A stretch of 64,000 nt of DNA, taken from contig NZ_CP084029.1 in NCBI RefSeq assembly GCF_020181615.1, positions 4,333,888-4,397,887 of the forward strand, given 5' to 3'. This document shows positions 17,948 to 34,667 of this stretch, one piece after another (positions within the stretch are counted from its first letter, which is position 1; the number at the start of each line of letters is the position of its first letter). The position numbers were made by a program, and so were the translations under genes. The notes below the pieces were generated by a model. It was given only the letters and a program-made list of their open reading frames with translations, did not search any database and was not told the DNA's origin. The stretch comes from [Mycobacterium] crassicus. Lineage in GTDB: Bacteria > Actinomycetota > Actinomycetes > Mycobacteriales > Mycobacteriaceae.

Positions 17948-18535
17948 TCACAGCAGGCCCGACCGCAGCACGTCGCCGGCAAGCCCGGCCACCACCGGCA
18001 CGATGCCCAGACACACGAACGCCGGCAGGAAGCACAGCCCGAGCGGGCCGGCGATCAGCACCCCGGCCCGCTCGGCGGCGGCCGTGGCGGCATGACCGGC
18101 GTCATCACGACACTGCGCGGCAAGCTCTCCGAGTCCGGCGGCCAGCGCCACCCCCGACGTCCCCGACCGCCGGGCCAGCCGCAGCACCGCGGTCGTCGAG
18201 GGGTCGAGAACGCCGGTGATCAACTCCGGCGGCAACCAGGCGATACCCGGATCGGCACCCAGGGCCAGCAGATCCGCGCCCCGGCGCAGCACCGCCGACA
18301 ACTGCGGCGGCGCCGATCGGGCAGTGGCGACGGCGGCGCCCGACACCGGCATCCCCGCAGTCAGGCAGAGCGCGAACACCTCGAGGCCGGCCGCCAACGC
18401 CAGTGCGTCGGTGCCCGGCACCGCCCGCGCCCGCACCGGGCGATCCCGCTCGGGCATTCCGGCCCGCCCCCGTACCGTCGACGGCCCGGCCGCGACCAGG
18501 ACGGCGCACGCGAGCAGCACCGCGGCGGCGCTCAC
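17948..18535 (-). CDS. TadC-like pilus platform protein (type II secretion F domain)
   Basis: This inner-membrane protein of 195 aa resembles Rv3657c. An N-terminal membrane helix (VSAAAVLLACAVLVAAGPS) is followed by a helical T2SF-type cytoplasmic part (LEVFALCLTAGMPVSGAAVATARSAPPQ, LARRSGTSGVALAAGLGELAAQCR). A C-terminal membrane region (LIAGPLGLCFLPAFVCLGIVPVVAGLAGDVL) closes the protein. GTG at 18535 overlaps the TGA of the upstream gene. With the TadB-like protein it should form the membrane platform that the TadA ATPase drives. Confidence 0.85.
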   Translation of the reverse strand: MSAAAVLLACAVLVAAGPSTVRGRAGMPERDRPVRARAVPGTDALALAAGLEVFALCLTAGMPVSGAAVATARSAPPQLSAVLRRGADLLALGADPGIAWLPPELITGVLDPSTTAVLRLARRSGTSGVALAAGLGELAAQCRDDAGHAATAAAERAGVLIAGPLGLCFLPAFVCLGIVPVVAGLAGDVLRSGLL

Positions 18536-19335
18536 GGGCCGGCCCCGGCGCGACCGGTGATCCGGTCCGACCACAACAATCCGGCGCAGACCAGGCACAC
18601 CCCCACCACCGACAGCACCCCGCCGGATCCGCCGAGCAGGAAACTCAGCGGCCGCGCTCCGAGCAACTGGCCCAGCAGCACACCGAGTACCGGCAGGCAA
18701 CCCAGGATGGTCGACGACGCCCGGGCACCGGCCATCCCGGCGTCAGCTCGCGCCGAAAACCGTTGCCGGGCAACGATGTCATGTTGCGCGGCCTGCATCA
18801 GGGTGGCCACCGCCAGACCATGGTCGCCGCCGAGGCCCCAGTAGACCGCAAGCCGTTCCCAGTGTGCGGGCAGCGCCGAGGAGCGCGCCGCATCCTGCAG
18901 GCCGGTGGCGACGTCGGCACCCAGCCGGGCCCGCGCGACCACACCGTGCAAGCCGGCGGCCACCGCTACATGGCGGGTCTCGGCGGCAGCAACGGCGAAG
19001 GCGCGCACCGGATGCGCTCCGATTCGCAACTCCCCGGCCAGGATGTCGAGCGCGGTTTCCAGGGCGCGGGCTTCCTCCCGTGCACGGCGGTCCCGCAGGC
19101 GGTGACGGTGACGCGCGGCGGCGGTGGCGCCGAACACCGTCCCGGCCACGCAGGCGCTGGCCGGCAGGGCGAGCACAGCCGCCGCGCCGCAGCCGCCGAC
19201 CACTGCCGCCACGGCCCACCGGCCGGCCCGCGCGCGTCGGCCCCGGCGGCCAGTCGGTTCGAGCCGCCGGCGGGGTGCGACACCCAGCAGGGCCGCCGCG
19301 GCCAACGCGAGCGCGGCGACAGCCGGGCCGGTCAC
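18532..19335 (-). CDS. TadB-like pilus platform protein (type II secretion F domain)
   Basis: This 267-aa integral membrane protein resembles Rv3658c. It has N-terminal hydrophobic helices (AVAALALAAAALLGVAP, WAVAAVVGGCGAAAVLALPASACVAG), a cytoplasmic T2SF segment (ALETALDILAGELRIGAHPVRAFAVAAAETR) and C-terminal helices (LGCLPVLGVLLGQLLGARPLSFLLGGSGGVLSVVGVCLVCAGLLW). GTG at 19335 overlaps the stop of the tadA 3' fragment (GTGA), showing that tadA and this gene were translationally coupled before the insertion. It now sits directly downstream of the transposon's left end and has no visible promoter of its own. Confidence 0.86.
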   Translation of the reverse strand: MTGPAVAALALAAAALLGVAPRRRLEPTGRRGRRARAGRWAVAAVVGGCGAAAVLALPASACVAGTVFGATAAARHRHRLRDRRAREEARALETALDILAGELRIGAHPVRAFAVAAAETRHVAVAAGLHGVVARARLGADVATGLQDAARSSALPAHWERLAVYWGLGGDHGLAVATLMQAAQHDIVARQRFSARADAGMAGARASSTILGCLPVLGVLLGQLLGARPLSFLLGGSGGVLSVVGVCLVCAGLLWSDRITGRAGAGP

Positions 19336-19511
19336 TGGGGCATCCGATCTCGCAGCAGCACACGGAATTCGGAAACGTGATCGGTCAGACCCCGTGCGAT
19401 CTGCCACACCGGTGCGGCCTGCACCCGCCCGGCGGCGGCACGGCGCAGCAGCGAGATCTCGGTGAGCCGCCGCCGGCCGTCGCGATCGCGCCCGACATGG
19501 AGGAGCACCTG
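19332..19511 (-). pseudogene. tadA 3' fragment (C-terminal 59 codons), separated by transposon
   Basis: The minus strand from 19511 encodes QVLLHVGRDRDGRRRLTEIS, then LLRRAAAGRVQAAPVWQIAR and a further 19 residues to TGA. This is the ending of Rv3659c-type TadA ATPases (LHSQLAAAVQVVLHV... in the M. tuberculosis protein as I recall it). It has no start codon or ribosome site. The remaining 329 codons of the gene are at 30912-31898 on the same strand. Joining 30912 to 19511 through one codon restores a frame of about 389 residues. Confidence 0.9.
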
Positions 19512-19524
19512 GCTGCTTTATCAG

Positions 19525-19564
19525 AGGTTTAACACGTTCTATTGGTCAATCAGCGTGTTTACCT
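19525..19564. repeat. Left-end subterminal inverted repeat of the transposon
   Basis: AGGTTTAACACG and CGTGTTTACCT pair as an imperfect inverted repeat (one-base indel) around a 17-nt spacer, starting 7 bp inside the left end. It is a candidate recombinase-binding site by analogy with arm sites of tyrosine recombinases. Confidence 0.55.
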
Positions 19565-19590
19565 GCACATTAATCATCGTATACATGTAT
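19541..19590 (+). promoter_or_regulatory. Possible promoter and ATACATGTAT palindrome before the first cargo gene
   Basis: An AT-rich stretch contains TATACA/ATACATGTAT (10-bp perfect palindrome at 19581-19590), about 90 bp upstream of the first cargo ORF. It could be a -10 element and an operator for the XRE domain protein encoded next. This is inferred from position only. Confidence 0.4.
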
Positions 19591-19679
19591 CCTCTTAGGT
19601 ATGGTTGGCCAAACATTTTCCAAGTTTGCACGGCGTGGCGCGCCGGCCGATGTGGGATACCGGGGTAAAAATTCACCCC

Positions 19680-20381
19680 ATGGACCTACACGACAATCCA
19701 CAACTGCTGGTGGAGAAGTTCGTCGAGCAGCATGCTCTCGTGTTGGGCGAAACGCATGGCGATCTGTGTGCGAGGTTGGCGGAGGTTCCGGACCGGTACG
19801 TCGATCAGGGGAACGATCCCCGAGGAATCACCGTGTCATGCACGCTGCTGGAGACGTTGCTGTTCTCGAGGTGGCGTCGCCAGACCGAGGACTCGACTTT
19901 GAAGGCGATCAAGGGCAACGGGTTTGGGATTGTTCTGGTCGACGGGAAGGGGTCTCGTATCGGGGTGCGCAAACATCCACGCAACTGGGACGGCAGCCTG
20001 CTCGAATCGGTGGAGTATGTGCCCGGCGAGCATCAGCTGAGTATCGAGGAGGAATTGGGGTACCCAATCGGCGGCGGGGATGGCATTCCGGAGCCTCCCG
20101 GGTATCGGCAATACGTACTGTGGTGGCCAGGCAATCTGGGCTTGGGTGGTGCGGTCTTGGCTGCGGGCATACTCACCGACAAGGTTCAGGTACTCTACGC
20201 CAGCACTCCGCTGCCGCCACCGATCATGGAGCAGCGTGCGAAAACGGCACCCACCATGGATCCGTTCACGCAGGCTACCGAGGTTGCAATGCCCGGAAAG
20301 CGGCGCCGGGACGAGGACTTCGCGGATGCCGACGGCGTCACCGAGGAGACACTGAACGAAGCGCCGCCGGAATCGTCGTAG
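19680..20381 (+). CDS. Unrecognised cargo protein paired with XRE-ImmA/IrrE protein
   Basis: This 233-aa protein is soluble with no signal peptide or membrane segment. I do not recognise the family. Visible features are CTLLETLLFSRWRRQTEDSTLKAIKGNGFGIVLVDGKGSRIGVRK (helix then beta strands), a Pro/Gly-rich stretch GYPIGGGDGIPEPPGYRQYVLWWPGN, a hydrophobic segment GLGGAVLAAGILTDKVQVLY, and an acidic-basic tail (KRRRDEDFADADG). ATG at 19680 is used; in-frame ATG 19650 and TTG 19605 are alternatives and no start has a strong ribosome site. It lies 64 bp upstream of the ImmA/IrrE gene in the same direction. That two-gene layout recalls toxin-regulator or stress-response pairs, but activity is unproven. 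Confidence 0.65.
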   Translation: MDLHDNPQLLVEKFVEQHALVLGETHGDLCARLAEVPDRYVDQGNDPRGITVSCTLLETLLFSRWRRQTEDSTLKAIKGNGFGIVLVDGKGSRIGVRKHPRNWDGSLLESVEYVPGEHQLSIEEELGYPIGGGDGIPEPPGYRQYVLWWPGNLGLGGAVLAAGILTDKVQVLYASTPLPPPIMEQRAKTAPTMDPFTQATEVAMPGKRRRDEDFADADGVTEETLNEAPPESS

Positions 20382-20445
20382 CCCTCGTGCACACTGCTGG
20401 GTGCATGCGGGGCTCCCACTCGGGTGATGTTGAATCGAGCGCACG

Positions 20446-21699
20446 ATGATCGAGGTTTTTGGTGCACGGGTCCGGCAGGCCCGGCTATTGCGGCGCATGA
20501 CGGCAACTTCTGTGGTGGGCCTGGTTGGCTGGAGCAATGCCCGCCAGACGAAGATCGAGAAGTCTTCGACGATCATGTTGTCCGTTGATGAGGTTGCGGG
20601 GCTGTCGGAGTTGTTCCGCTTTCCTGCACGGTTTTTCAGCTCGGAACCGCAGTCTCGCGTATCGGCGGGTGAGTTGCTTTTCCGGGCGCCAAAGTCGATG
20701 ACTGTTGGCGAGCAGGACTTCTTGGCGACGTTCGCTTCGCTCGCCGGCGATTTTCTCGGCGACCTGGATGAGCGGTCGAAATTGCCTCATGTGAAGGTCC
20801 CGTCGATCTGCGGCAAGGATCATCACCGGCCGAGCGCGGTCCAGGCCGCAGGGTGGCTGCGCGAGGCGATGGGGCTAGAACCTCATGAGCCACTGGATGA
20901 TTTGATGTATGAAACTGAGCGATTGGGTGCACCGGTGATCGTCCGGCGGCGCACTCCGGGTGAGTGGGAGAGCGAGTTCGCGGCCACACCGGGGAGAGCG
21001 CGTGACGAGAAGCACTTGGGTTATTCGAGTTGGGTGGGACGACACCGGGATCGCCCGCTCGTAGTGTTGCGCGAATCCGAGTCGTGGGAACGGACCCGAT
21101 TCACCGTTGCCCATGAGTTGGGGCATTTGGTGTTGCACAGCCGTGGGCACTGCTCGGTGAACTCGGGCGAGGAGTTGGAGGCCAACCGGTTCGCCACCGA
21201 GTTGTTGGCGCCCGTCGCCGCGCTGGCGCCGGAGTTGCCACAGGTGATGTCACTGTTGAACCTCAAACCGCTCAAGGACAAGTGGGGCTTGTCGTTGGGT
21301 TCGCTGATCATGCACATGCGTGACTCGGGATTGATCGACGCTGATCGCGCAAAAATGCTTACCACACAACTGTATTCACGGATCAATCCTGAGACTGGGC
21401 ATACCTGGGGTATGACGGAACCCGGATGGAACGAACGTGACCCCGAGCGGCCCAGGCTGCTGCGCAAGTGGGTGGAACGCTGCTACGGGGATGCCTCGGT
21501 GCCGATGCTGGCCGCACGCGAGTCAATGATATTTCCATCGGATCTGCTCGAATGGTTCCTGGCTACGCAACGGCCTTCACCTGCATCTGACAGGCGCCCG
21601 ATGGCTGCCGTCGGGATGCGCGGTGCTAGCGGATCAGCCCCGGAAGAGCGGCATCAAGTGGTCCGCCTCGACGATTTCCGTCGCGGTAAAACTCCATGA
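20446..21699 (+). CDS. XRE HTH - ImmA/IrrE metallopeptidase fusion
   Basis: This 417-aa protein has two recognisable modules. An N-terminal XRE-like helix-turn-helix (FGARVRQARLLRRMTATSVVGLVGWSNARQTKIEKSS) spans about residues 4-60. An ImmA/IrrE (COG2856) zinc peptidase domain has the HELGH motif in RFTVAHELGHLVLHS near residue 225 and a following glutamate in SGEELEANRFATELLAP. Proteins of this type cleave or inhibit phage-type repressors or act as stress switches, as ImmA of ICEBs1 and IrrE of Deinococcus do. Here it may control the element or the upstream gene. The 3' end is 23 bp before the proposed tnpA start. Confidence 0.9.
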   Translation: MIEVFGARVRQARLLRRMTATSVVGLVGWSNARQTKIEKSSTIMLSVDEVAGLSELFRFPARFFSSEPQSRVSAGELLFRAPKSMTVGEQDFLATFASLAGDFLGDLDERSKLPHVKVPSICGKDHHRPSAVQAAGWLREAMGLEPHEPLDDLMYETERLGAPVIVRRRTPGEWESEFAATPGRARDEKHLGYSSWVGRHRDRPLVVLRESESWERTRFTVAHELGHLVLHSRGHCSVNSGEELEANRFATELLAPVAALAPELPQVMSLLNLKPLKDKWGLSLGSLIMHMRDSGLIDADRAKMLTTQLYSRINPETGHTWGMTEPGWNERDPERPRLLRKWVERCYGDASVPMLAARESMIFPSDLLEWFLATQRPSPASDRRPMAAVGMRGASGSAPEERHQVVRLDDFRRGKTP

Positions 21700-21721
21700 A
21701 CGGCGCGAGAGGCTGCTGAAC

Positions 21722-22927
21722 GTGGCGCGGGTGCAGCGGCTGTGTTTCCCGGACCGGCCTGATACCTACACGGTGGTCGGCGCCGATCGGCTACCCGTTG
21801 CACCTGCCCGAGAGTACTTGCGGTTCCTCGCAGATCAGGGCGCGTCTCCAAATACGGTGCGTGCCTACGCATACGGGCTATCGGCGTGGTGGACGGTGCT
21901 CGAACACACCGGCGCGGCCTGGGATGATTTTCCCACTAGCCTGTTTGGCGAGTTCCTGTGTTATCTGCGGACTGGGGATCTGCCGGGCATGGTCCGTATC
22001 GGTGAGCCCGGGCCTGGGATGGCCGAGTCGTCGTTGCAGCCGCGGGGGGCTGCGGTGTTGTCGATGTACCGGTACTTCGCCGACGCCCACGATTTGACCC
22101 GCCCGTACCGCCGCTTGTTTTCCTCCCACGCCCGATCCTCGCGGCGCCGCTATGCCCCCACCCTGGCTGGTGTCGGACCGCGACGTGATCAGGAGGTGCC
22201 TGTGCACCGCCGGCGTGCACCCAATCGCAGCGAGACGCCGGTGTTGTTGCCCGATCAAGTCAACGCCATCCTGGATGGCTGCAGTGTGCAGTCGCCGTCG
22301 GGTGAGTGGACCGGCAGCGAGGCGGGTTTGCGTGACCGGTTATTCTTCGCCGTCCTGGCCGAGACCGGAATGCGAATAGGTGAAGCATTATCTTTGCGCC
22401 ACAATGATTTCCATATCACCGGGGGTGAGACTCCGTCGATTCTGGTGGCCGGCCGCGACGATCACCCCCATGGGGTACGAGCCAAGTCCGGTGCACGCCG
22501 GATCTACATCGGCGATGATCTGGTAGCCCTCTACAGCGAGTACGTGTGGCAGCTGATCGGGTGGGCCGCCGACGTCGCGGTTGCCGATCTGGCGTCGCAC
22601 TTCGTGTTCGTCAATCTGGCACGCGGCCAGCGCTATGCACCGTTGCGCCCGGAAACCGTCTACGACAAGGTGGACACCCTCACGGCCGCCCATGCTGATG
22701 TGTTGCCGCAGGACTGGACTCCTCACTGGCTGCGCCACACCCACGCTACAGCTCTGCTGTTGTCTGGGGTGCCTGAACACGTGGTGATGCGCCGTCTCGG
22801 CCACGCCGATGTGCAGACCACGCTGTCGATCTACGGGTGGGTGACCGCCGACGCCGAGATGCGCACGGTCGCGCAGTGGAAGAGCTTCGTCGCCGGCTGG
22901 AAGGTGAGCCATGACTCAACCCCGTAA
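21722..22927 (+). CDS. tnpA: Tn554-like transposase A (tyrosine recombinase)
   Basis: This site-specific recombinase is 401 aa with the start chosen. The N-terminal SAM-like core-binding domain is YLRFLADQGASPNTVRAYAYGLSAWW. The catalytic domain has Arg in TGMRIGEALSLRHND, the His-x-x-Arg box HWLRHTHATALLLSG, His in RRLGHADVQTTLSIYGW and the Tyr nucleophile in that last motif. GTG at 21722 has GAGAGG upstream. The frame stays open to an upstream in-frame start codon at 21623, which would overlap the previous gene by 77 bp, so I prefer the shorter form. Its 3' end overlaps tnpB by 17 bp. In Tn554, TnpA and TnpB act together for cutting and joining at a specific target. Confidence 0.9.
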   Translation: MARVQRLCFPDRPDTYTVVGADRLPVAPAREYLRFLADQGASPNTVRAYAYGLSAWWTVLEHTGAAWDDFPTSLFGEFLCYLRTGDLPGMVRIGEPGPGMAESSLQPRGAAVLSMYRYFADAHDLTRPYRRLFSSHARSSRRRYAPTLAGVGPRRDQEVPVHRRRAPNRSETPVLLPDQVNAILDGCSVQSPSGEWTGSEAGLRDRLFFAVLAETGMRIGEALSLRHNDFHITGGETPSILVAGRDDHPHGVRAKSGARRIYIGDDLVALYSEYVWQLIGWAADVAVADLASHFVFVNLARGQRYAPLRPETVYDKVDTLTAAHADVLPQDWTPHWLRHTHATALLLSGVPEHVVMRRLGHADVQTTLSIYGWVTADAEMRTVAQWKSFVAGWKVSHDSTP

Positions 22928-25139
22928 CAGTCACGTCGATTCTGCAGGATCCGCGGCGGCCACCGTGTGGGATCGGCAATGGCAGCAGGTCCCTGAATCG
23001 TGGCGAACTTTGCACTACCGCATCGACGCTGCACCGTTCGACGCCGTGTTCGTGCGCAACCAGCGCTACCTGAACAATCCCGACGGCCACGACTTCACCC
23101 CCGCCGATGTCCCAGAACGCTTTCGCCAAGAAATGGCGTGGTGGGTGTGGTTGTGCGGCCACGAAGGAATCCGCAAGATCGAGCCGTTCCTGCTGAAGTG
23201 GACGGCCGTCGCCTTGACCGACGCCGCCGCCGAGCACCAGCAGCGGTATCACCGGCCTCCAGTGAGCATTGCAGACCTCGCGGCCGAGGATGTCGTACGT
23301 CACGCCGTGGTGCGCTTTGAGCGCCGCAACGCCCGCCTGCCCTCCGCGGGGGCTCGGCGCCAGGTCGTGGCCTTGATCGAGCACCTGCATCTTTACGTAT
23401 CGGTGCGCTGCACCGATGCCCCGTGGTGGGCCCATGACATCTGGGATCTACGGGCTGATCCCCGCATACCACAGCGCGAACATGAACCCAGCCATGACCA
23501 AGTCGTCAAACTTGCCGCGATCCACCCGCCCTGGCTGCGTGAGGGCGTGCGGTTCTGGCTGCGCACCTCCATAACCGCGGAATTGCTGCGCTGGTCATCG
23601 GTAGCCGATCGTGCTCGCAACATGGCCAGGCACCTCGGCCCGTTCTTGGCCGCCCGCAACATCAGCACCCCACTGTTGGCCGATGACCGCGCCGCCCTGC
23701 GGTTGTTGTTCACCGAGTTCTCCAACTACCTGAAATCCCCATCCGCACAGTTCAAACCAGACCGGCCGTTGTCAGCATCCGCGGTGGACTCGACCCAGTC
23801 GCAGGCCCAGGTGTTCTACGCCTTCATGGTTGATCACGCCGAGGAAGCCGCTGCGGCGACCGGCGACCCCCGGTGGGCTCAGATCACCGACACCTACACG
23901 CGTCTGTGGGGCGCGGCGTTTCGAACGCGCCGCGCCAACCGGCAGCGGGAGCTGACGTGGTTCTCCACGTCGGAATTGCAGCAGATGCTGTGCTACCTCG
24001 ATGTGCTGGCGGCCGATCGCGGTATGCCGGTGGCCATCACTCACCCTGATGCAACGATCTCGGTTGTCGCCGGCCTCGGAGACCCGCAAGCCGCGCGCGT
24101 CTGGCTGCTGCAGGCGCTGACCGGACGCCGAGCCTCGGAGATACTGATGCTCGACTTCGACCCTCTGACCGCTATTCCCGGCCCGGAACGCCCCACAGAT
24201 TCCGATGACCCCAACGCATTCGTCGCCAAGTTGCGCTACCAGCAGACCAAGGTCGACGGGGTACTGCCGTCGATCCTGGTTGAGAAGGCGGTGGTCAACG
24301 TGATCACCGAACAGCAACAGTGGGTTCGCCGCCGCTACCCTGGGCTGAGCCCGAAGTACCTGTTCCTCGGACTGCGCCACCAGCATCAGGGCCACCGGGC
24401 CCGCACCTACCAGTCCTACGGTGTGGCACTGAACAAACTCGACAAGGTTCACGGCCTGGCCGACTCGGCCGGGCGTCCGCTGCGGTTCAGCCAGACCCAT
24501 CGGCTGCGCCATACCCGGGCCACCGAGTTGCTAAACGACGGCGTTCCCATTCACGTGGTACAGCGATACCTTGGGCACGCATCCCCTGAGATGACCCTGC
24601 GCTACGCTGCGACGCTTGCTGCAACAGCTGAGTCAGAATTCCTGCGGCACAAGAAGGTCGGCGCACACGGCACCGATATCGCAATCAGTCCATCCGATAT
24701 TTATGACATGACTCAACTGGCGGCCCGCACGGATCGGGTACTTCCCAACGGCGTGTGCCTGCTTCCTCCGCTGAAGAGCTGTGACAAAGGAAATGCTTGT
24801 CTGTCATGCGGGCATTTCGCCACCGACGCCACTCATCTCGACGAATTGATCGCGCAGCGCGCCAAGACCGTCAACTTGATCGAGGTCCGCCGCGAACAGT
24901 ACCGGCGACGTAGCGGGCGGGAACTCACCGACGACAACGTGTGGATTCACGAACGGCGCCGGGAGATCGCCTCTCTGGACGCGATCATCGAGCGTCTGCA
25001 CACCGACACCGAGGGCCTCGCGAACGGAGCCAGTGTGGGCGGTGCTGGTGCCTCAAACCGGTTGCCGCTGTTGAAGGTCAAGACCCGCGGCAGCCACGAA
25101 TCTGTTCTACGCAAAGCCGACCCCAACGCACCCGGATGA
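22911..25139 (+). CDS. tnpB: Tn554-like transposase B (large tyrosine recombinase)
   Basis: This recombinase of 742 aa, compared with about 630 for staphylococcal TnpB, has a long N-terminal region typical of the family. The catalytic residues are visible: Arg in TGRRASEILMLDFDP, HRLRHTRATELLNDG, and Tyr in LGHASPEMTLRYAA. After it comes a Cys/His cluster (CDKGNACLSCGHFATDATH) and a helical tail with many charged residues. ATG at 22911 lies within the end of tnpA; TGA overlaps tnpC (ATGA). The pair is therefore translated as one unit with tnpC. Confidence 0.92.
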   Translation: MTQPRNSHVDSAGSAAATVWDRQWQQVPESWRTLHYRIDAAPFDAVFVRNQRYLNNPDGHDFTPADVPERFRQEMAWWVWLCGHEGIRKIEPFLLKWTAVALTDAAAEHQQRYHRPPVSIADLAAEDVVRHAVVRFERRNARLPSAGARRQVVALIEHLHLYVSVRCTDAPWWAHDIWDLRADPRIPQREHEPSHDQVVKLAAIHPPWLREGVRFWLRTSITAELLRWSSVADRARNMARHLGPFLAARNISTPLLADDRAALRLLFTEFSNYLKSPSAQFKPDRPLSASAVDSTQSQAQVFYAFMVDHAEEAAAATGDPRWAQITDTYTRLWGAAFRTRRANRQRELTWFSTSELQQMLCYLDVLAADRGMPVAITHPDATISVVAGLGDPQAARVWLLQALTGRRASEILMLDFDPLTAIPGPERPTDSDDPNAFVAKLRYQQTKVDGVLPSILVEKAVVNVITEQQQWVRRRYPGLSPKYLFLGLRHQHQGHRARTYQSYGVALNKLDKVHGLADSAGRPLRFSQTHRLRHTRATELLNDGVPIHVVQRYLGHASPEMTLRYAATLAATAESEFLRHKKVGAHGTDIAISPSDIYDMTQLAARTDRVLPNGVCLLPPLKSCDKGNACLSCGHFATDATHLDELIAQRAKTVNLIEVRREQYRRRSGRELTDDNVWIHERRREIASLDAIIERLHTDTEGLANGASVGGAGASNRLPLLKVKTRGSHESVLRKADPNAPG

Positions 25140-25549
25140 GGCAACGCCCCCCTCCCCCTTCGGATAACGCCCGCCGCGCCCTGGCCGACTACCGTAAGAA
25201 CATCTCCCAGACCAAGCGCCGGGATATCGAACGCGCCATCAAACACCTGCGCAAGACCAACGCCATCATCAACATATCCACCGTCGCTGCCCGCGCCGGC
25301 GTAGAACGCAAGACCGTCTACAAGCACCGCGACCTCGTCGCGATCATCGACGCCTACCGACGCCAGCCGCCTTCGCTCGACGCCGCGACGGGCCGCGAGA
25401 GCACCGTCGTAGCCGCCCTACGTGCCCAACTGGTCGCCAAGGACGGTGAGATCCGCGCACTGAGAACCAAGCTTGCCGAACAAGAATCGACAATCGCACT
25501 GCTCTACGGACAACTCGACGCCGGAAACGGTGCAGGGGGCGGCGGCTAA
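25136..25549 (+). CDS. tnpC: Tn554-like TnpC accessory protein
   Basis: This 137-aa basic, helical protein has an N-terminal HTH-like part (RDIERAIKHLRKTNAIINISTVAARAGVERKTVYKH) and a C-terminal coiled coil (LRAQLVAKDGEIRALRTKLAEQESTIALLYGQL). TnpC of Tn554 affects transposition frequency and orientation. ATG at 25136 overlaps the tnpB stop by 4 bp. The frame extends upstream inside tnpB but is not used. Position, size and architecture all agree with the family. Confidence 0.85.
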   Translation: MRQRPPPPSDNARRALADYRKNISQTKRRDIERAIKHLRKTNAIINISTVAARAGVERKTVYKHRDLVAIIDAYRRQPPSLDAATGRESTVVAALRAQLVAKDGEIRALRTKLAEQESTIALLYGQLDAGNGAGGGG

Positions 25550-25661
25550 TGGGTGCCATCGCAACAACGGCTTGGGGCACCGCCTGCACTTCACTCGCGA
25601 TTCCAGCCATTGTGGCGCCGAAACCACGCACCCGTAGCCGTAATCCCCCAATCTGCGGCGG

Positions 25662-28600
25662 TTACAGGGTGCCTGTGTCGTAATACGGATCGCTCAGGCG
25701 GGCCTGACGGTGTGGAGGTGGGATAGAGCGCGGCGTGTTGGGCCACCAGCTGGCTTCGCGCAGGAGTGTGGCGATGGCGGGGACGGTGAGGGTGCGAACG
25801 AGGAATGTGTCGAGTAGGAGTCCGCAGCCGATGATGAGGCCGACTTGGATCATGATCGCGATGGAGCCGAACATCAGTCCGAACATGCTGGCGGCGAAGA
25901 TGATTCCGGCCGAGGTGATGACCGAGCCGGTGCGGGCGACGGTGCGCAGTACCCCTACGCGAATGTTGTGTTTGGATTCCTCCCGCAGCCGTGAGACGAG
26001 CAGCATGTTGTAGTCGGCGCCGACGGCTACCAGGATGATGAAAGCCAGCAACGGGACGGGCCAGGCGATTTCGTAGCCGAGTCCCCATTGGAAGACCAGC
26101 ACTCCGATGCCCAGTGAGGCCAGGTAGTTCAGCACGACCGTCCCCAGCAGGTATAGCGGGGCGAGCAGGGCGCGCAAGAGCAGGATGAGGATGAGTCCGA
26201 CGATGACCAGGGTGCTGATGGCCAGTTGGGTGAAGTCAGCCGACAGGAGCCGTTGGATGTCGGAGTTGACGGCGGGGAACCCGGCAACGGCGATAGTGGC
26301 GTTGGCCAGGGTGGTGTTGGGGCGGGCGGTGTCGGCGGTCTCGACGATCTGGCGGGCGAGGGTGATCGCCTGCGCGCTGTAGGGGTCGTAGCTGGATTCG
26401 ACGACAAAGCGGGCGGTTTTGCCATCGGGTGAGAGGAATTGTTTGGCAACGTCGGTGAATTGACGGTTATCGAAGGCACTGGCGGGCAGGTAGAAACCGC
26501 TCGCTGCGTCAGAGCCGGCGCTGGCGCGGGCCGAGTTCTGCAGTTGGGCGGCGACCTGGCCCATCCGAGCCAACATTTCGATGTTGCTGTCGGCCAGGGC
26601 GTGCACACCGGCGGCCAGCGCTTGCGCCCCGGAAGCGAGTTGGCCGACGCCCTCTTGGAGCCGGCCGATGTTGCCGGCCGGGTCCGCGGGATCACCCTGA
26701 GTTCCGAAGGCCTTGTCAAGTGCTGCGGCAGCGGCTTGTATGTCGGCAAGGGTGCCAGCAATGGTGGCGTCGGTGTCAGGGTTGTAGCGATCGCCGAGGG
26801 TGGCGACTTCGGTGAAGAATCCGTTATCGCGCAAACTCACCAGGATCCGGACCTGGTTACGGATTTGCGCGCATTGCGGCGTGGTGGCACACCACTCGGA
26901 AGTGTTCAGGCCATCGACGAGGGGGGCCAGCACGGCGAGGGCGGTTTCGGCTTGATCCGCCCGCGACCGCAGCCCGGGGCCGGATTGGATGGCTTGGTCG
27001 ACGGTGGGTGCGGAGGCCGAAAGTTCTTGCAGCAACGGTCGAGATGACCACAGCAGGGTGTCACCGGATTGGGCTCGGGCCAGTACGCCCGACAGCGGGG
27101 TCAAGATCGCGTGCAGGGCGGCATCGAGCTGGGCCAGGCCGCCAGCGAGTTGATCGGCGCCGTCGGTGAGTTGAGTGAGGTCGCCTTTTCGTGCGTCGCC
27201 ATCGGCGACGGCGTCGGCCATCTTGTCGCCGATCTGCCTGTTCTGCCAAGACAGTTGGGCTTGTTCGAGACGGGTGCCGGTGGGGCGGGTTATCCCGATG
27301 ACTTTGGTGACCCCGGATACTTGGGCGACCCGGGAGGCCATCTCGTCGAGGTCGGCCAGACCTTTGCTGGTGCGCATGTCGTCGGGGTTCTCCACGACGA
27401 GAAATTCGGTGATGACGACGTCTTTGGGGAAGTGGCGATCCAGCAGTTGGTAACCCTGGTTGCTGGCGGTGGTGGCAGGCTGGCCTTTGCGGTCGTCGTA
27501 GCTGATCTTCATCGTGGTGGCGATGGCCGAGAGGGCCAGCAGGATCACCAGGCTCACGGCCAACAGTGGCACCGGCCGGCGGACCACCGCGACAGCGACA
27601 CTGTTCCAGTAGCGGCGGGTTCGATCGGATTTCGGCTCGCCGATTCCACGGCGGGCGGCCAGCGCCAGCACCGGCGGCAACAGGGTCACGGTGGCCAGGA
27701 ATCCGACCAGCACGGCGACCGCGCAGGCCGGGCCGAGCCCGGCGAAAACACTGAGGCGAGCGAAAACCATGGCAAAAAAGGCCAGCGCAACGGTGGCCGC
27801 CGAGGCCAGGATCACGCGCCCGATGCTGGCGGTGGCATGAATGACGGCCTGATCGGCGGGGACATGTGCGCGGCGCTGTTCGTGGTAGCGGCTGATCAAA
27901 AACACCGTGTAGTCGGTGCCCGCCCCGAGCAGGATCACGGTCATGAACGCCACGGTGAACTGCGAGACGGGCATGCCGCTCTCGCCGAGGACAGACAGCA
28001 CACCACGGCCGACGGCCAGGCTGACCCCGATCACCAGCAGGGGCAGCAAGGCGGTGAACACCGACCGGTAGACAATCAGCAGGATCAGTGCGATCAGCGC
28101 GGCGGTGGCGATCGAGATCAGCAGCAGGTCGTGTTCGGCGGCAGCGATCTGGTCGTTGAAGGTGGCCGCCGGGCCCGTCACGTGCACGGTCGTCGGTGAA
28201 CCGGCGAATAAACCGGCGGCGATGTCGCGCACGGCTTGGACGGATTCGGCGGCCTTGGGGTCACCCAGGGTGCCGGCCACACCCACCGGCAGATACCAGG
28301 CTTTGCCGTCATTGCTGGTCGCATGCGCCGCGGTGACCGGGTCGGCGAGCAGATCTTGAACCAGCAAGACGTGGTCGGTATCGGCGCGCAGCTGCACCAC
28401 CAACTGCTCATAGCGGTTGCGCACCGGCGCGGTTAAGCCGTCGGGGTCTTCCATCGCCACGACCAGCATCGTTTTGGAGCCCTGTTCACCGAAGGCCGCG
28501 CTCATGCGGTCCACGGTTTGAAACGACGCGGCGTCGCGGGGGATCAGGTTCACCGATTGCTGCCGTACCACCGTTTCCAGCTGCGGGAACACCAGTGCAA

Positions 28601-28793
28601 GCAGCACGGCGACGGCGATCCAGCCGCCGATGACCAGTGCTTTATGACGCACCGTGAACCCGGCCAGTGTTGCTAACCGGCTGCTGTACTCACTGGATTG
28701 GCCCGGATCGGCCACCCCGTTGCGGGCCCGCACAGGCAGGGTTGCCGTGCCCGCACCGCCCGGGTTGTCCGCACTCACCGCGCCTGCGCCCAC
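25662..28793 (-). CDS. MmpL/RND family transporter (transposon cargo)
   Basis: This large membrane exporter of 1043 aa has two RND halves. Each begins with one membrane segment and a periplasmic domain, then a block of five segments. MmpL motifs are present in GAGTDYTVFLISRYHEQRRAH (first block) and VAVGADYNMLLVSRLREESKHN (second block). The second periplasmic domain is long and helical (Gln/Ala-rich, about residues 510-800) and holds a likely disulfide pair (WCATTPQCAQ). MmpL proteins export lipids, siderophores or drugs with proton motive force. No mmpS gene is next to it. The start is GTG at 28793; GTG at 28778 is an alternative. It ends the cargo operon and meets tnpC convergently. Confidence 0.92.
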   Translation of the reverse strand: MGAGAVSADNPGGAGTATLPVRARNGVADPGQSSEYSSRLATLAGFTVRHKALVIGGWIAVAVLLALVFPQLETVVRQQSVNLIPRDAASFQTVDRMSAAFGEQGSKTMLVVAMEDPDGLTAPVRNRYEQLVVQLRADTDHVLLVQDLLADPVTAAHATSNDGKAWYLPVGVAGTLGDPKAAESVQAVRDIAAGLFAGSPTTVHVTGPAATFNDQIAAAEHDLLLISIATAALIALILLIVYRSVFTALLPLLVIGVSLAVGRGVLSVLGESGMPVSQFTVAFMTVILLGAGTDYTVFLISRYHEQRRAHVPADQAVIHATASIGRVILASAATVALAFFAMVFARLSVFAGLGPACAVAVLVGFLATVTLLPPVLALAARRGIGEPKSDRTRRYWNSVAVAVVRRPVPLLAVSLVILLALSAIATTMKISYDDRKGQPATTASNQGYQLLDRHFPKDVVITEFLVVENPDDMRTSKGLADLDEMASRVAQVSGVTKVIGITRPTGTRLEQAQLSWQNRQIGDKMADAVADGDARKGDLTQLTDGADQLAGGLAQLDAALHAILTPLSGVLARAQSGDTLLWSSRPLLQELSASAPTVDQAIQSGPGLRSRADQAETALAVLAPLVDGLNTSEWCATTPQCAQIRNQVRILVSLRDNGFFTEVATLGDRYNPDTDATIAGTLADIQAAAAALDKAFGTQGDPADPAGNIGRLQEGVGQLASGAQALAAGVHALADSNIEMLARMGQVAAQLQNSARASAGSDAASGFYLPASAFDNRQFTDVAKQFLSPDGKTARFVVESSYDPYSAQAITLARQIVETADTARPNTTLANATIAVAGFPAVNSDIQRLLSADFTQLAISTLVIVGLILILLLRALLAPLYLLGTVVLNYLASLGIGVLVFQWGLGYEIAWPVPLLAFIILVAVGADYNMLLVSRLREESKHNIRVGVLRTVARTGSVITSAGIIFAASMFGLMFGSIAIMIQVGLIIGCGLLLDTFLVRTLTVPAIATLLREASWWPNTPRSIPPPHRQARLSDPYYDTGTL

Positions 28794-28847
28794 GAAAGAC
28801 GCTGCCGCCGGTCACAATGACTCGGCTGCCGGCGATGACGAAGATCC

Positions 28848-29282
28848 TTAGTTGGGGGTCGTTGCACCGGCATTGTCGTCCTCGTCGTAGGGGATGTCAT
28901 GGCGGACCACCTTGACCCTGCCGTGCGGCAGGCACGCCATGTAACCGTGGTGTTTGCCGTAGAGCTCCCAGGCGGTGGCGCGCTCGTTGGCGCTGACCTC
29001 GATGCGCAGGCCGTTGGAGAAGCTCAGGAGTAGCCGACCGGAATCGTCGTGGCATGCCTTCGTGCACACCGCACCCGCCAGATCCAGTAGCGGACGTTGG
29101 TGGGCGGCGACCTCGCGCGGGTCGATGAGCACTTCCTCGGCCGGAAACTCACCGCTAGCCGGCAGGGCAAGCCACAGCAGGCAACTGATGACTACCTCGT
29201 TGGCGTCATCAAAGCTCAACACCAGATCACCCTGCAACGACATCCGCTGCACGGTGCAACCTTCGATCCACGTGGTGTACAT
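28848..29282 (-). CDS. DUF6188-like protein (transposon cargo)
   Basis: This 144-aa soluble protein starts MYTTWIEGCTVQRMSLQGDLVLSFDD and has a C-terminal region with FSNGLRIEVSANERATAWELYGKHHGYMACLPHGRVKVV. Both halves fit DUF6188-type mycobacterial proteins of unknown function. Four cysteines (9, 34, 71, 75 region) are present without an obvious metal motif. It lies between the thioesterase and MmpL genes with the same direction. The 90-bp gap upstream contains a 17-bp inverted repeat, so it may also have its own promoter. Confidence 0.7.
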   Translation of the reverse strand: MYTTWIEGCTVQRMSLQGDLVLSFDDANEVVISCLLWLALPASGEFPAEEVLIDPREVAAHQRPLLDLAGAVCTKACHDDSGRLLLSFSNGLRIEVSANERATAWELYGKHHGYMACLPHGRVKVVRHDIPYDEDDNAGATTPN

Positions 29283-29331
29283 CGCGCACCTCCGTCGACG
29301 CCCAACCGGTCTGCACTGAAATGGTACGGCA

Positions 29332-29348
29332 AGTAGCGCTGCGCTACT
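29332..29348. promoter_or_regulatory. Palindrome upstream of the DUF6188 gene, possible TetR site
   Basis: A 17-bp perfect inverted repeat, AGTAGCGC-T-GCGCTACT, sits about 50 bp before the DUF6188 start. GGTACGG lies at its left and GTTACGGG at its right; both words recur at the TetR/thioesterase intergenic site. Confidence 0.5.
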
Positions 29349-29372
29349 AGTAATAGCGTTACGGGTTGCGGG

Positions 29373-29930
29373 TCAGGATTCCGGATCGCTCGGCGCCCCG
29401 TTGTCCCCGAGCCGCCGAAGAAGATGTTCGAACGCTGCTACGTCGCCATAGGCGGCGAAGTGATCGGCGGTGACCACGACGAACACCGCATTTGCGGTGA
29501 ATCGGGTGGCCCCCTCGGGGTCGGTGCCGGTTGCGCCGATGTGCAGCACGCGGCCTTCCCGGGAGGCAATGTGCGCGGTGATGCGGTGGGATCGATGCAG
29601 CACGACCGGCTGGAGGTATTCGACGGTCAGGCTGCGTGTCACAGCGGGCGCGCCGGCAATCCACAGCGCGAACCCCAGCACGTCGTCGCAGGCGGCGGCG
29701 ACCGCCCCGCCGTGCGCCAGACCGGGCGCGCCGACGTGGCGTTCGTCGAAAGTCACGTCCGCGTACACCGTGTCGCCGCTGCGGTAAACCACCAGCTGCA
29801 GACCGTGCGGATTCTGCGGTCCGCAACCCATACACGTCCGAGTATGTGCGGGCAGCAGCTCAGGCCGTGCCGCACCCGAGCGGCCGGACGCGACATCGTG
29901 ATGCGGTGAGTGATCGGCCACCAACGACAC
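29373..29930 (-). CDS. PaaI-type hotdog thioesterase (transposon cargo)
   Basis: This hotdog-fold protein of 185 aa has CMGCGPQNPHGLQLVV near the N-terminus, then VTFDERHVGAPGLAHGGAVAAACDDVLGFALW, the 4HBT/PaaI pattern with the HGG motif and catalytic Asp, then TRSLTVEYLQPVVLHRSHRITAHIASREGRV. It probably hydrolyses acyl-CoA thioesters in the cytoplasm. It is divergent from the TetR gene and heads the cargo operon toward MmpL. A function in making or editing the MmpL substrate is an inference from the operon. Confidence 0.88.
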   Translation of the reverse strand: MSLVADHSPHHDVASGRSGAARPELLPAHTRTCMGCGPQNPHGLQLVVYRSGDTVYADVTFDERHVGAPGLAHGGAVAAACDDVLGFALWIAGAPAVTRSLTVEYLQPVVLHRSHRITAHIASREGRVLHIGATGTDPEGATRFTANAVFVVVTADHFAAYGDVAAFEHLLRRLGDNGAPSDPES

Positions 29931-29956
29931 CTTCGGTACACATAGTTTCGCTGCGC

Positions 29957-29972
29957 TACCGTTGGTACGGTA
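29957..29972. promoter_or_regulatory. Inverted repeat between thioesterase and tetR, probable TetR operator
   Basis: TACCGT-TGGT-ACGGTA is a perfect 6+6 bp inverted repeat with a 4-bp spacer, centrally placed in the 101-bp divergent intergenic region. It overlaps a second pair, GGTAC-G-GTACC. Confidence 0.6.
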
Positions 29973-30031
29973 CCCGTTACGGGCGGTGACGCGGGTAATT
30001 GGTCGGGAATCTGGAATGAGGCGAGGGGTGA

Positions 30032-30727
30032 GTGGGTGTGAGCAGCGAGCAGGTACCGCCGGTGCCCGATGACGACGATATTGACCCCCGCCGGACCCGG
30101 TCGCGCAACCGCTTGCTCGACGCCGCGACCGCGCTGCTCAGCAGCGGTGGCATCGAAGCCGTCACCATCGAGGCGGTCACCAAAGCTTCCAAGGTGGCCC
30201 GCACCACCCTCTACCGCCATTTCGGCAGCTCATCGCAGTTGCTCGCGGCCACCTTCGAGCGACTCTTACCTCAAGTAACCCCACCCGGGCCGGCCAGTGG
30301 GACATTGCGCGAACGACTCATCGAACTGCTCACCCGACAGTCTGCGCTGTTCGCCGACGCCCCAGCACACATCACCATGCTGGCCTGGCTCGCCCTGGGC
30401 CCGACCACAATCGATCACGCCAGCACCGAACATGCCCCGCAGGCGCTGCGAGCGCGGGTCATCAACCAATACCGGCAGCCCTTCGACGCCATCCTGCAAG
30501 ACATTGAGGCCGCTGCTGAATTCGACGGCCTGGACCCGGATCTCGCACTGTGCCAACTCATCGGACCACTCGCGTTCGCACGAATGACCGGCCTGCGATC
30601 CATCACCGCACACGACTGCGCCCGCATCGTCGACGACTTCCTGGCCACTCACCGGACCCAGGAAGCCCAATCCGCAGTTCCACAGCCCGACGGTCAAAGG
30701 GGCACAGACGACAACCGCCCGGGGTGA
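30032..30727 (+). CDS. TetR/AcrR family regulator (transposon cargo)
   Basis: This 231-aa protein has an N-terminal TetR DNA-binding domain from about residue 19: TRSRNRLLDAATALLSSGGIEAVTIEAVTKASKVARTTLYRHFGSSSQLL. A ligand-binding/dimerisation domain follows, with a TetR_C-type stretch (VINQYRQPFDAILQDIEAAAEF). The last 25 residues are polar and disordered. The start GTG at 30032 follows GAGGGG; GTG at 30038 is an alternative. It is divergent from the thioesterase and is the expected repressor of the thioesterase-DUF6188-MmpL genes and itself. The ligand is not known. Confidence 0.92.
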   Translation: MGVSSEQVPPVPDDDDIDPRRTRSRNRLLDAATALLSSGGIEAVTIEAVTKASKVARTTLYRHFGSSSQLLAATFERLLPQVTPPGPASGTLRERLIELLTRQSALFADAPAHITMLAWLALGPTTIDHASTEHAPQALRARVINQYRQPFDAILQDIEAAAEFDGLDPDLALCQLIGPLAFARMTGLRSITAHDCARIVDDFLATHRTQEAQSAVPQPDGQRGTDDNRPG

Positions 30728-30835
30728 GCCCTCTCCCGGGGCGCAATCAGTGCAACCGGGCAGGCGACAGGAGAAACGGGCCGGGATGGCAGCCGCGCAA
30801 TCCCTAGGCGGGCACACCGTGCGATTCAATCGTTC

Positions 30836-30872
30836 CCGATTAGGCTGATCGGCACGGGACGCACCTAATCGG
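30836..30872. repeat. Right-end subterminal inverted repeat of the transposon
   Basis: CCGATTAGG and CCTAATCGG form a perfect 9-bp inverted repeat with a 19-nt spacer, ending 36 bp from the right end of the element. It may be a terminator for tetR or a recombinase site. The rest of 30728-30908 contains no gene. Confidence 0.5.
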
Positions 30873-30878
30873 TAACAG

Positions 30879-31898
30879 TCATACACACATGCTCGCGACA
30901 CCAGATAATACGGCCGCCGCCAACTGGCTGTGCAGACCGGCACGGTCCAGCCCGCCGAGGGCGGCCAGCGCTTCCAGACGGGCCGGCACCTCGGCCGGAC
31001 TGTTGGCGTGCACCGTGCCGGCGCCCCCGTCGTGCCCGGTGTTCAGGGCCGCCAGCAGATCCACCACTTCGGCGCCCCGGACCTCGCCGACCACCAGCCG
31101 GTCCGGCCGCATCCGCAGCGCCTGCCGGACCAGCTCACGCAGCCCCACCTCACCCGCGCCTTCGACATTGGCCGCGCGAGCCACCAGCCGGACCAGATGC
31201 GGGTGGCGGGGTTGCAGCTCGGGGGCGTCCTCGACGCAGACCAGGCGCTCACTCGCTGGCACCGCCCCCAGCATGGCCGCCAGCAGCGTGGTCTTGCCGG
31301 CGCCGGTTCCACCGGAGACCAGGAACGCCAGCCGGGCGGCGATGATGTCGGCCAGCAGCGCCGCCGCCACCGGCGCGATGGCACCCGCCGCGGTCAGCGC
31401 GGCGATGTCCTGGGTGGCCGGCCGTAACACCCGCAACGACAGGCACGTCCCATCGAAGGCCACCGGCGGCAGTATCGCGTGCAGCCGCACACTGAACTCG
31501 CCGGTGCCGATACCGCCGAGCCGGCCGTCGACCCACGGTTGCGCGTCGTCGAGCCGGCGCCCCGCGGCCACCGCCAGTCGTTGGGCCAGTCGGCGCACCG
31601 CCGCCTCATCGGCGAATCGGATGTCGGTGCGCCGCAGGCCGGCTCCGTCGTCAACCCACACCGCATCGGGTGCGGTTACCAGGACGTCGGTGGTGGCGGG
31701 CGCACACAACAGCGGTTCGAGCACGCCGGCGCCGGTCAACTCGGTCTGCAGCACCCGCAGGCTGGACAGCATCTCGGTGTCGCCGAGCACACCGCCGGAT
31801 TCGGCCCGGATCGCGGCGGCCACCGCCTCCGGCCGTAACTCCGCCCACGCCTGCGCGGCCAGCCGTTCGCGGACCCGATCGATCAACGAATCCCTCAT
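30879..31898 (-). pseudogene. tadA 5' part, pilus assembly ATPase truncated by transposon
   Basis: This is the N-terminal 329 codons of a TadA/VirB11-type secretion ATPase (Rv3659c-like). They end at 30912 and are followed by ten element-derived codons (VLSGVASMCV) and TGA. Visible motifs are Walker A GGTGAGKTTLL with Lys202, the Asp box VCVEDAPELQ, Walker B RPDRLVVGEVRGAE and the His box GTVHANSP. The start ATG at 31898 overlaps the preceding gene's stop (ATGA). The last 59 native residues are at 19332-19511. A 339-aa product that keeps all ATPase motifs could still be made, but it lacks the C-terminal domain. TadA powers pilus assembly at the inner membrane. Confidence 0.9.
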
Positions 31899-32965: not shown

Positions 32966-33072
32966 CCGCTCACGGTGGCGGGACGCGACCGCTCGAACCA
33001 GCCGAATTCGGCCGATTGTGGATGAAAAACCCGACTGGTGACAAACCAACGGTATGTACCACGGATAAAACG

Positions 33073-33113: not shown

Positions 33114-33158
33114 TTCGGAAAAATGGTGTTCCAGCGAAGAAAATACCCCGGAAAAAAG

Positions 33159-33196
33159 GACGACCCCCGCCAGGGGGGGAGGAGGCGGAGGTCGTC
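33159..33196. terminator. GC-rich hairpin between ssd and the HAD gene
   Basis: GACGACCCCCGCC (33159-33171) pairs with GGCGGAGGTCGTC (33184-33196) with one C-A mismatch, around a G-rich loop. It could end an antisense or leader transcript, or act as a 5' structure. No strong U-run follows on either strand. Confidence 0.45.
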
Positions 33197-33382
33197 GTGT
33201 ATCAACCCCGGGGGGTCGGGCCGATACACCCTCAGCATAAGCCGAGTGATGCCACTATACACACGACAGGGCGGTCTGGCGCAAGTGTCGCGGCCAAATG
33301 CCCCACTTCGTTCCGATGGCCCTGAAGTGCTCTTTCCGGCATAGCGCCGGGCCGGACCAGGCTCCGGACCTATGCTGTACCG

Positions 33383-34347: not shown

Positions 34348-34641
34348 CACGGAAGGCCGGTGAGGCCAAGATCGATCCGGAAGAGAAGGATCGATCTCCT
34401 GAACCGAACTTCCCAGTACGGATAGCGGTACCCACGCGGAGCCACAGCCGCGAAGATGGCAGAAGTGTTGTGGGCCTGCGTAATTGCGATACGTGTTCGG
34501 ATTTGCCAGCCCTTTGGGTGGGGTTGCCGCCGAATAACACCGCAGGAGCGCCGAGGCCGCCCACGCAACCCACGTTGGACGCTTGGTAACCGTGAACCGT
34601 ACTAGCGGGCGGCGGGCCGATTCCATCGGAACGCCGCCCGC
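34348..34641 (+). ncRNA. Ms1 / MTS2823-type small RNA
   Basis: The 418-bp gap between the HAD gene and the Rv3662c-like gene is where mycobacteria encode Ms1 (MTS2823), an abundant ~300-nt RNA that binds RNA polymerase core without sigma. Here TTGCTG (34315-34320) and TACAAA (34337-34342) are a plausible promoter, which would give a start near 34348. The region contains self-complementary pieces (GATCGATCCGG...GGATCGATC) and ends in a perfect hairpin terminator at 34605-34641. The resulting length of about 294 nt fits. The 5' end is an estimate, and the identity rests on synteny and structure. Confidence 0.75.
34605..34641 (+). terminator. Terminator of the Ms1-type RNA
   Basis: The outer arms GCGGGCGGC and GCCGCCCGC (9 bp) and an inner CCGAT/ATCGG stem form a long hairpin, followed by TTCGCTATT. 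Confidence 0.8.
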
Positions 34642-34667
34642 TTCGCTATTGCGGTGCAGCTATCGGA

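What the first reader, a model, noticed from the sequence alone, without database searches (positions are those of the whole stretch)
19332..31898. Tn554-like transposon splits the pilus ATPase gene tadA
Two fragments of one TadA-type ATPase flank an 11.4 kb element with tnpA-tnpB-tnpC. The left fragment holds the last 59 codons and the right fragment the first 329. Operon overlaps (ATGA at the ssd-tadA border and GTGA at the tadA-tadB border) survive at both ends, so the original operon order is clear. Tn554-family elements with MmpL-type cargo in mycobacteria, and with tadA as the target, are not something I know to be described.
Basis: partly seen in the sequence, partly recalled or inferred. 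Interest (0 to 1): 0.85.

Follow-up and report, generated by a model that had tools for sequence, protein, structure and literature searches.

The report
Mobile elements repeatedly break pilus gene
An 11.4 kb jumping element related to Tn554 has split the pilus-motor gene tadA in this mycobacterium, and related as well as unrelated mobile elements have broken the same gene in other mycobacteria, which makes tadA a shared target that may be worth disabling.

Summary
tadA is split by an 11,391-bp element (19518-30908) with tnpA-tnpB-tnpC, an XRE/ImmA regulator gene and a TetR/thioesterase/DUF6188/MmpL cargo; no tadA codon is missing. Actinobacterial Tn554-like elements, mycobacterial ones included, were already described (PMC3414803, 2012).

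New here: (1) tadA is the family's recurrent target. At least 26 of 396 genus genomes are broken at the same site, as are Gordonia, Speluncibacter and Tsukamurella records. Byte-identical elements sit in different species whose aligned flanks are 79-89% alike. (2) The tnp-side hexamer appears to record the previous site. It fits the tadA core in 6 of 10 non-tadA copies and 0 of 21 tadA copies; in two reciprocal sets of near-identical elements each copy carries the other's target core. The family seems to shuttle between tadA and secondary or plasmid sites. (3) Two other recombinase systems, a distant TnpABC-like element and a large serine recombinase island, break tadA at two other conserved motifs.

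Most novel reading: mobile elements converge on tadA to disable a Tad pilus. Tad genes are reported essential for transformation in Micrococcus luteus; in mycobacteria that role is untested. A new variant of a known kind.

The parts
18532..19348 (-). tadB-like gene, overlaps the end of tadA
   Evidence: ORF; homologues beside tadA in some relatives
19332..19511 (-). left (3') tadA piece, 59 codons plus stop
19512..19517 (+). foreign hexamer GCTGCT, inferred to be the core of the element's previous site
   Evidence: differs between insertions of identical elements
19518..19527 (+). left terminus TTATCAGAGG
19605..20381 (+). conserved orfX, no Pfam or PADLOC match
20446..21699 (+). XRE + ImmA/IrrE (Peptidase_M78) regulator; resembles RmrA models of PADLOC
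21683..22927 (+). tnpA, tyrosine recombinase (ORF may start at 21623)
22911..25139 (+). tnpB, long tyrosine recombinase
25136..25549 (+). tnpC (DUF6262, below Pfam's cut-off)
25662..28793 (-). cargo MmpL-family transporter
   Evidence: nearest solved chains MmpL4/MmpL5
28848..29282 (-). cargo DUF6188 protein
29373..29930 (-). cargo hotdog (PaaI-like) thioesterase
30032..30727 (+). cargo TetR-family regulator
30899..30908 (+). right terminus CACCAGATAA
30909..30914 (+). target core TACGGC (belongs to tadA)
30909..31898 (-). right (5') tadA piece, 330 native codons; ORF runs on to 30879
31895..33049 (-). ssd (TIGR03815), overlaps tadA

Best explanation
A Tn554-like transposon whose chromosomal attachment site is a conserved stretch of tadA (codons for HSQLAAAV|QVLLHV). 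TnpA and TnpB are inferred to cut and join there, helped by TnpC, inserting in one orientation without removing tadA DNA and leaving six bases from the previous site at the tnp end. The family alternates between tadA and secondary sites, some on plasmids, and so reaches new species. The insertion truncates the TadA motor ATPase and cuts tadB and later genes off from their operon, so the Tad pilus should be lost. Shown: position, orientation, recurrence, identity, hexamer pattern. Inferred: enzymology, shuttle direction, loss of the pilus.
For: Same breakpoint in divergent hosts and elements; junction pattern in 20 of 396 genomes with reversed control in none, and 26 of 396 with the protein maps. 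Identical 11,391-bp copies in L078, L079, L080 and L082 and one mismatch in L081; aligned flanks of L079, L081 and L082 78.6-89.1%. Hexamer fits the tadA core in 6 of 10 non-tadA copies against 0 of 21 tadA copies (Fisher p 2.9e-4). Two reciprocal hexamer sets and one chromosome/plasmid match in one strain. The genomes of the non-tadA partners L181 and L085 have intact tadA (G339, G386), so those copies came from elsewhere. TnpB tree: one change between tadA and decarboxylase targets. Plasmid copies.
Against: No experiment shows transposition or excision. Four of 10 non-tadA copies and 18 of 21 tadA copies carry hexamers of unidentified origin, the window's GCTGCT among them. Two of 16 tadA right cores do not fit NACSGC (L086, L101). 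The hexamer test was made after the pattern had been noticed. No near-identical plasmid copy was found (18 records match, 0 cover 80% of the element). In G190 the tadA piece and the element lie 35 kb apart on the same strand, an exception to the usual layout. Pilus loss is inferred.
Confidence: 0.87

Rival explanations
1. tadA is targeted because disabling the Tad pilus pays the element: if the pilus imports DNA, its loss stops transformation from replacing the element by an empty allele (anti-competence insertion, as argued for comYC, comEC, comFA, comK and comM).
For: Three recombinase systems break tadA at three conserved motifs: C-terminal HSQLAAAV; ALNTGHDGG in G410 and G246; Walker A in G119 and G316. 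In Micrococcus luteus tad-1 proteins, TadA1 included, are reported as essential for transformation/pilus assembly (PMC8467076 passage) and tadA1/tadA2 are called competence-related (PMC6667448 passages). ComEC family PF03772 in 59 of 60 genus genomes. Precedent: PMC4774983 passages.
Against: I recall no demonstrated natural transformation in mycobacteria, and the ten papers listed show none by title. PF03772 also rings in E. coli and 9 other of 14 controls. Another branch of the family uses a decarboxylase gene with no evident link to DNA uptake. Conserved coding motifs are convenient targets in any case, and I did not measure how often other conserved genes are hit by several recombinase families.
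Confidence: 0.3
2. tadA is a neutral, convenient site: a dispensable gene with a conserved DNA stretch, like radC for Tn554. Recurrence reflects recombinase specificity only.
For: The site is strongly conserved (in the 120 best TadA homologues the residues at the site are nearly invariant). One subfamily has a decarboxylase PLP-motif codon as target, one change on the tree.
Against: Does not by itself explain two further, unrelated or very distant recombinase systems at other tadA codons.
Confidence: 0.6
3. The insertion is a reversible switch: precise excision restores tadA under some condition.
For: The window's tadA pieces are open and no target bases are lost; a related class (SEs) forms circles (PMC10214605 passages).
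Against: No excision scar among the 120 best TadA homologues (119 look intact at the site, one, P0175, is itself broken there). Weak, since an excision that restored the original core would leave none. No empty site within a carrier strain was examined.
Confidence: 0.1
4. Assembly artefact: a repeat element wrongly bridged in tadA.
For: One draft genome holds the element as its own contig (L078), and L080 has gaps on both sides.
Against: The same junction with different host DNA in many independent assemblies; the window lies in a single-contig genome.
Confidence: 0.02

Closest known systems
Tn554 family (Tn554, Tn558, Tn6188, Tn6674)
   Same: tnpA-tnpB-tnpC order, homologous TnpA and TnpB (tested against L229, a staphylococcal set that I label Tn554-type), site-specific insertion into a coding gene, six-base difference between the two flanks with no target duplication
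   Different: target tadA instead of radC (radC recalled, and a search term of the listing); 742-aa TnpB; extra XRE/ImmA and orfX genes; MmpL/thioesterase cargo; TnpC similarity is weak
Actinobacterial Tn554-like transposons (Famint27/33, PMC3414803)
   Same: one long and one ordinary tyrosine recombinase plus a TnpC-like partner, in mycobacteria, on plasmids and chromosomes (passages)
   Different: the passages I read give no target gene, termini, hexamer record or cargo; these are added here
Strand-biased circularizing integrative elements (SE) and GInt
   Same: two tyrosine recombinases, target specificity, six-base footprint carried from the donor site (PMC10214605 passages)
   Different: SEs have an extra Tfp gene and are described in Gammaproteobacteria
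Competence-gene-targeting prophages and islands (comYC, comEC, comK, comFA, comM)
   Same: conserved site inside one gene of a DNA-uptake or pilus system, hit across species and by different integrases (PMC4774983 passages)
   Different: here the gene is tadA, in bacteria in which I know of no demonstrated competence

Membership tests
Tn554 family | collinear tnpA-tnpB-tnpC | tested here: met
   same order in L229 (S. saprophyticus plasmid)
Tn554 family | TnpA homologous to a Tn554-type TnpA | tested here: met
   27% over 396 aa, E 8e-38, against L229; the record does not name its element, 'Tn554-type' is my label
Tn554 family | TnpB homologous, long tyrosine recombinase | tested here: met
   38% over 152 aa of the catalytic part, E 7e-27, against L229
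Tn554 family | TnpC homologous | tested here: inconclusive
   no BLASTP hit between the two TnpC proteins; window TnpC matches DUF6262 at 25.0 bits, cut-off 29; L229 TnpC is annotated DUF6262
Tn554 family | no target duplication, six-base core carried from the donor | tested here: met
   by comparison of genomes only
Tn554 family | attachment site in radC (recalled for Tn554 itself) | tested here: not met
   target is tadA; I take radC to define Tn554 itself and not the family
Tn554 family | transposition needs TnpA, TnpB and TnpC | not testable with these tools
   needs mutants
SE (strand-biased circularizing integrative element) | Tfp gene between the two recombinase genes | tested here: not met
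   tnpA and tnpB overlap
Competence-disrupting element | target gene needed for DNA uptake in the host | not testable with these tools
   reported only for M. luteus tad genes in passages read

The most novel reading that the evidence does not exclude
In mycobacteria tadA is a convergent disruption target. At least three unrelated or very distant recombinase systems evolved to integrate into three different conserved motifs of one gene, because loss of the Tad pilus protects the integrated element, most simply by blocking pilus-dependent DNA uptake and hence chromosomal curing. This would imply that mycobacteria use, or recently used, Tad pili for natural transformation, and that Tn554-like elements shuttle between tadA and plasmids with a six-base travel record.
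Probability: 0.3. Interest if true: 0.88.

Novelty: new variant of a known kind. Interest (0 to 1): 0.7.

Why it matters
If the hexamer reading is right, the route of a transposon can be read from a genome: which kind of site each copy came from. It points to traffic between tadA and other sites, plasmids included, across mycobacterial species, with an MmpL-type transporter as cargo. Repeated breakage of tadA by different recombinases makes a concrete, testable case that the mycobacterial Tad pilus matters to mobile elements, and it bears on the question whether mycobacteria take up DNA naturally.

Tried and rejected
Rejected: (a) one-off insertion: refuted. (b) Target duplication at the ends: the two six-base flanks differ. 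(c) A second, intact tadA in the own genome: PF00437 finds the broken gene and one weak match below the cut-off. (d) A near-identical plasmid donor: none in the plasmid collection (18 records with a match, 0 covering 80%). (e) Excision scars: none among the 120 best TadA homologues of 7998, although a precise excision would leave no scar.

Led nowhere: the generic repeat search gave chance-like matches only. The genes at the secondary sites could not be named with confidence. orfX has no Pfam or PADLOC match. Left ends were not found for L105, L106, L108, L109 and several others. Paper searches gave nothing on the point (listings only).

For the decarboxylase type I counted the nearest neighbours L095, L096 and L217 with it, although on the tree they lie beside and not inside that clade; with L217 moved, the tadA-type figure would be 6 of 11. 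G204's split was read as the start of a circular record and G116 as a frameshift; neither is counted. G298 and G315, with two TadA matches each, and the second broken copy in G225 were not looked at singly. One search listed only part of its matches. One search scored only two candidates per genome, so TnpB copies are undercounted (G127's chromosomal copy was missed there and found).
Full report
Observation. The window lies in a single-contig genome of 4,871,803 bases. The two tadA pieces were searched apart. The right piece matches the TadA model TIGR03819. The element is 19518-30908, 11,391 bp, with ends TTATCAGAGG and CACCAGATAA; 64.0% G+C against 68.6% for the window.

Gene content. orfX (no match), XRE/ImmA regulator, tnpA, tnpB, tnpC, then MmpL, DUF6188, hotdog thioesterase and TetR. 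The nearest solved relatives of the MmpL are MmpL4 and MmpL5. The thioesterase-DUF6188-MmpL set occurs in other members, inverted relative to tnpABC in several. No substrate can be given.

Identity across species. The whole 11,391 bp are 100.000% identical in L078 (Mycolicibacter acidiphilus), L079 (M. heraklionensis), L080 (Mycolicibacter sp. MYC340) and L082 (M. sinensis). L081 (Mycobacterium kyorinense E861) has one mismatch; L083 is 99.955% over 8,960 bp and L084 97.07% over 11,179 bp. The chromosomal flanks that aligned (L079, L081, L082, L084; only 141 bp in L081) are 78.6-89.1% identical. I read this as recent horizontal spread.

tadA as target. In L079, L081 and L082 the same element sits at the same tadA position. 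So do diverged relatives (TnpB 59-86% identical) in M. asiaticum, septicum, fortunisiensis, brisbanense, peregrinum and others, in Speluncibacter and Gordonia (in Gordonia only the left piece was in the locus) and in a Tsukamurella record labelled plasmid that carries tad genes. The orientation relative to tadA was the same wherever both lay in one locus; G190, with the two 35 kb apart on the same strand, is an exception. The exact right-junction pattern is in 20 of 396 genus genomes, its reversed control in none. Protein mapping adds G253, G395, G189, G260 and G230 and G127: at least 26 of 396, G190 and the mini-element of G413 included. A TnpB of the wider family (E <= 1e-100) is in 68 of 396. 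G413 holds only a 529-bp remnant or mini-element with both ends at this site. One of the 120 best TadA homologues in the protein database, P0175, also ends in the element just after this site.

Second target. One TnpB clade instead breaks an Orn/Lys/Arg decarboxylase-like gene (my assignment from the sequence, not from a family search) just before GSVFHLQGD, next to the HKMGAG motif; its intact core is CTGCTC and the right core in L087 is CTGCTC. On a quick TnpB tree of 58 rows (41 different), tadA and decarboxylase labels need one change. tadA insertions lie in most clades outside the decarboxylase one.

Hexamer record. In tnp orientation the left flank of most tadA insertions reads ..CACCTG (variants occur), then six variable bases, then TTATC. 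The right core is NACSGC in 14 of 16 tadA insertions read. Identical elements have different left hexamers: GCTGCT in the window, AGCGCT in L079, GGAGGT in L082, and CGCGCG in L081 with its one mismatch. Among tadA-type elements the left hexamer fits the tadA core in 0 of 21 copies inside tadA and in 6 of 10 copies elsewhere (L085, L122, L181, L226, L112 and L116 yes; L192, L225, L114 and L206 no; Fisher p 2.9e-4; chance per site about 0.004). The tadA copies of L264 and of the mini-element L265 would make it 0 of 23. For the decarboxylase type, taken widely, it is 0 of 6 inside the target and 2 of 9 elsewhere (L120, L121). These counts were made after the pattern had been noticed.

Reciprocal sets. 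L185 sits in tadA with core GACCGC (G191) and left hexamer GACCAG; L085, 99.97% identical over 13,358 bp, sits elsewhere with core GACCAG and left hexamer GACCGC. L098 and L107 sit in tadA with core CACGGC (for L107 read on another contig of G377) and left hexamer CGACGT; L181, 99.95-100% identical in the pieces shown, sits elsewhere with core CGACGT and left hexamer CACGGC. The genomes that hold L181 and L085 (G339, G386) have intact tadA. The simplest reading is that each move copies the core of the last site to the tnp end, as stated for SEs and Tn554-related elements (PMC10214605, passages), and that copies alternate between tadA and secondary sites. That no tadA copy read carries a tadA core suggests that the step into tadA comes from a secondary site; this is inference.

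Other breakers of tadA. In G410 and G246 tadA is broken at ALN|TGHDGG by a 6.6-kb element with two tyrosine recombinases and a gene with a weak DUF6262 match, very distant from the window's proteins. In G119 and G316 it is broken inside the Walker A codons by islands of about 11 kb with a large serine recombinase (PF00239, PF07508) and a DNA methylase gene. So at least three recombinase systems use tadA at three conserved motifs. I did not test how often other conserved genes are hit by several recombinase families, so convergence is suggested and not measured.

Consequence. The right ORF keeps the Walker A motif but lacks the last 59 codons and gains nine foreign ones; tadB and later genes lose the upstream operon. 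CpaF (TadA) drives pilus extension and retraction in Caulobacter (PMC11300603, start of abstract). In Micrococcus luteus tad-1 proteins, TadA1 included, are reported as essential for transformation/pilus assembly (PMC8467076 passage), and tadA1 and tadA2 are called competence-related (PMC6667448 passages). A ComEC-family gene is in 59 of 60 genus genomes, the own genome included, but also in 10 of 14 control genomes. Elements that break competence genes are known (PMC4774983 passages); tadA does not occur in that paper's main text.

What is known. Actinobacterial Tn554-like transposons, mycobacteria included, were defined in 2012 (PMC3414803 passages); a Tn554 island was noted in M. brisbanense (PMC4816395 passages) and a Tn554 transposase on the nontuberculous mycobacterial plasmid pMARIA (PMC6822416 passage). 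I found no paper on tadA as a target in the searches (listings read; some searches listed 20 of 28, 15 of 26 and 10 of 84 papers); most subscription papers are not in that library.

Verdict. The insertion is real and the Tn554-like reading is right, but the mycobacterial family was known. New, as far as I could search, are the recurrent tadA site, the travel record and the breakage of tadA by other elements.

Noticed in passing
L265 (G413), about 2400-2960: A 529-bp mini-element with both family termini sits at the same tadA site without any tnp gene: a remnant, or a copy moved in trans.
   Followed up: partly
L260, L261 (G410, G246): A distant two-recombinase element with a weakly DUF6262-like gene breaks tadA at ALN|TGHDGG.
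   Followed up: partly
L262, L263 (G119, G316): Serine-recombinase islands with a DNA methylase gene lie inside the tadA Walker A codons.
   Followed up: partly
L087, L089, L091, L092, L094: A sister clade of the element splits an Orn/Lys/Arg decarboxylase-like gene at its PLP motif.
   Followed up: partly
protein P0175: A database TadA of 338 aa ends in HSQLAAAVLSV: another broken copy, in an 11.6-kb contig.
   Followed up: partly
window 20446-21699: The XRE/ImmA gene next to tnpA matches RmrA models of PADLOC (E 5e-44); it may control the element.
   Followed up: no
window 19605-20381: orfX is conserved upstream of the XRE/ImmA gene in plasmid copies and has no family match.
   Followed up: no
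L078: The contig is the element plus one base, as expected for a repeated or circular element.
   Followed up: no
L219, L220 (M. chimaera plasmids): A related element lies beside arsenic and other metal-resistance genes.
   Followed up: no
window 33155-33230 (-) and 34349-34649 (+): 6C RNA and Ms1 RNA (Rfam) lie just upstream of the ssd-tadA operon.
   Followed up: no
G190:C1:4752379 and 4788447: The broken tadA right piece and the identical element lie about 35 kb apart on the same strand: rearrangement or misassembly.
   Followed up: no
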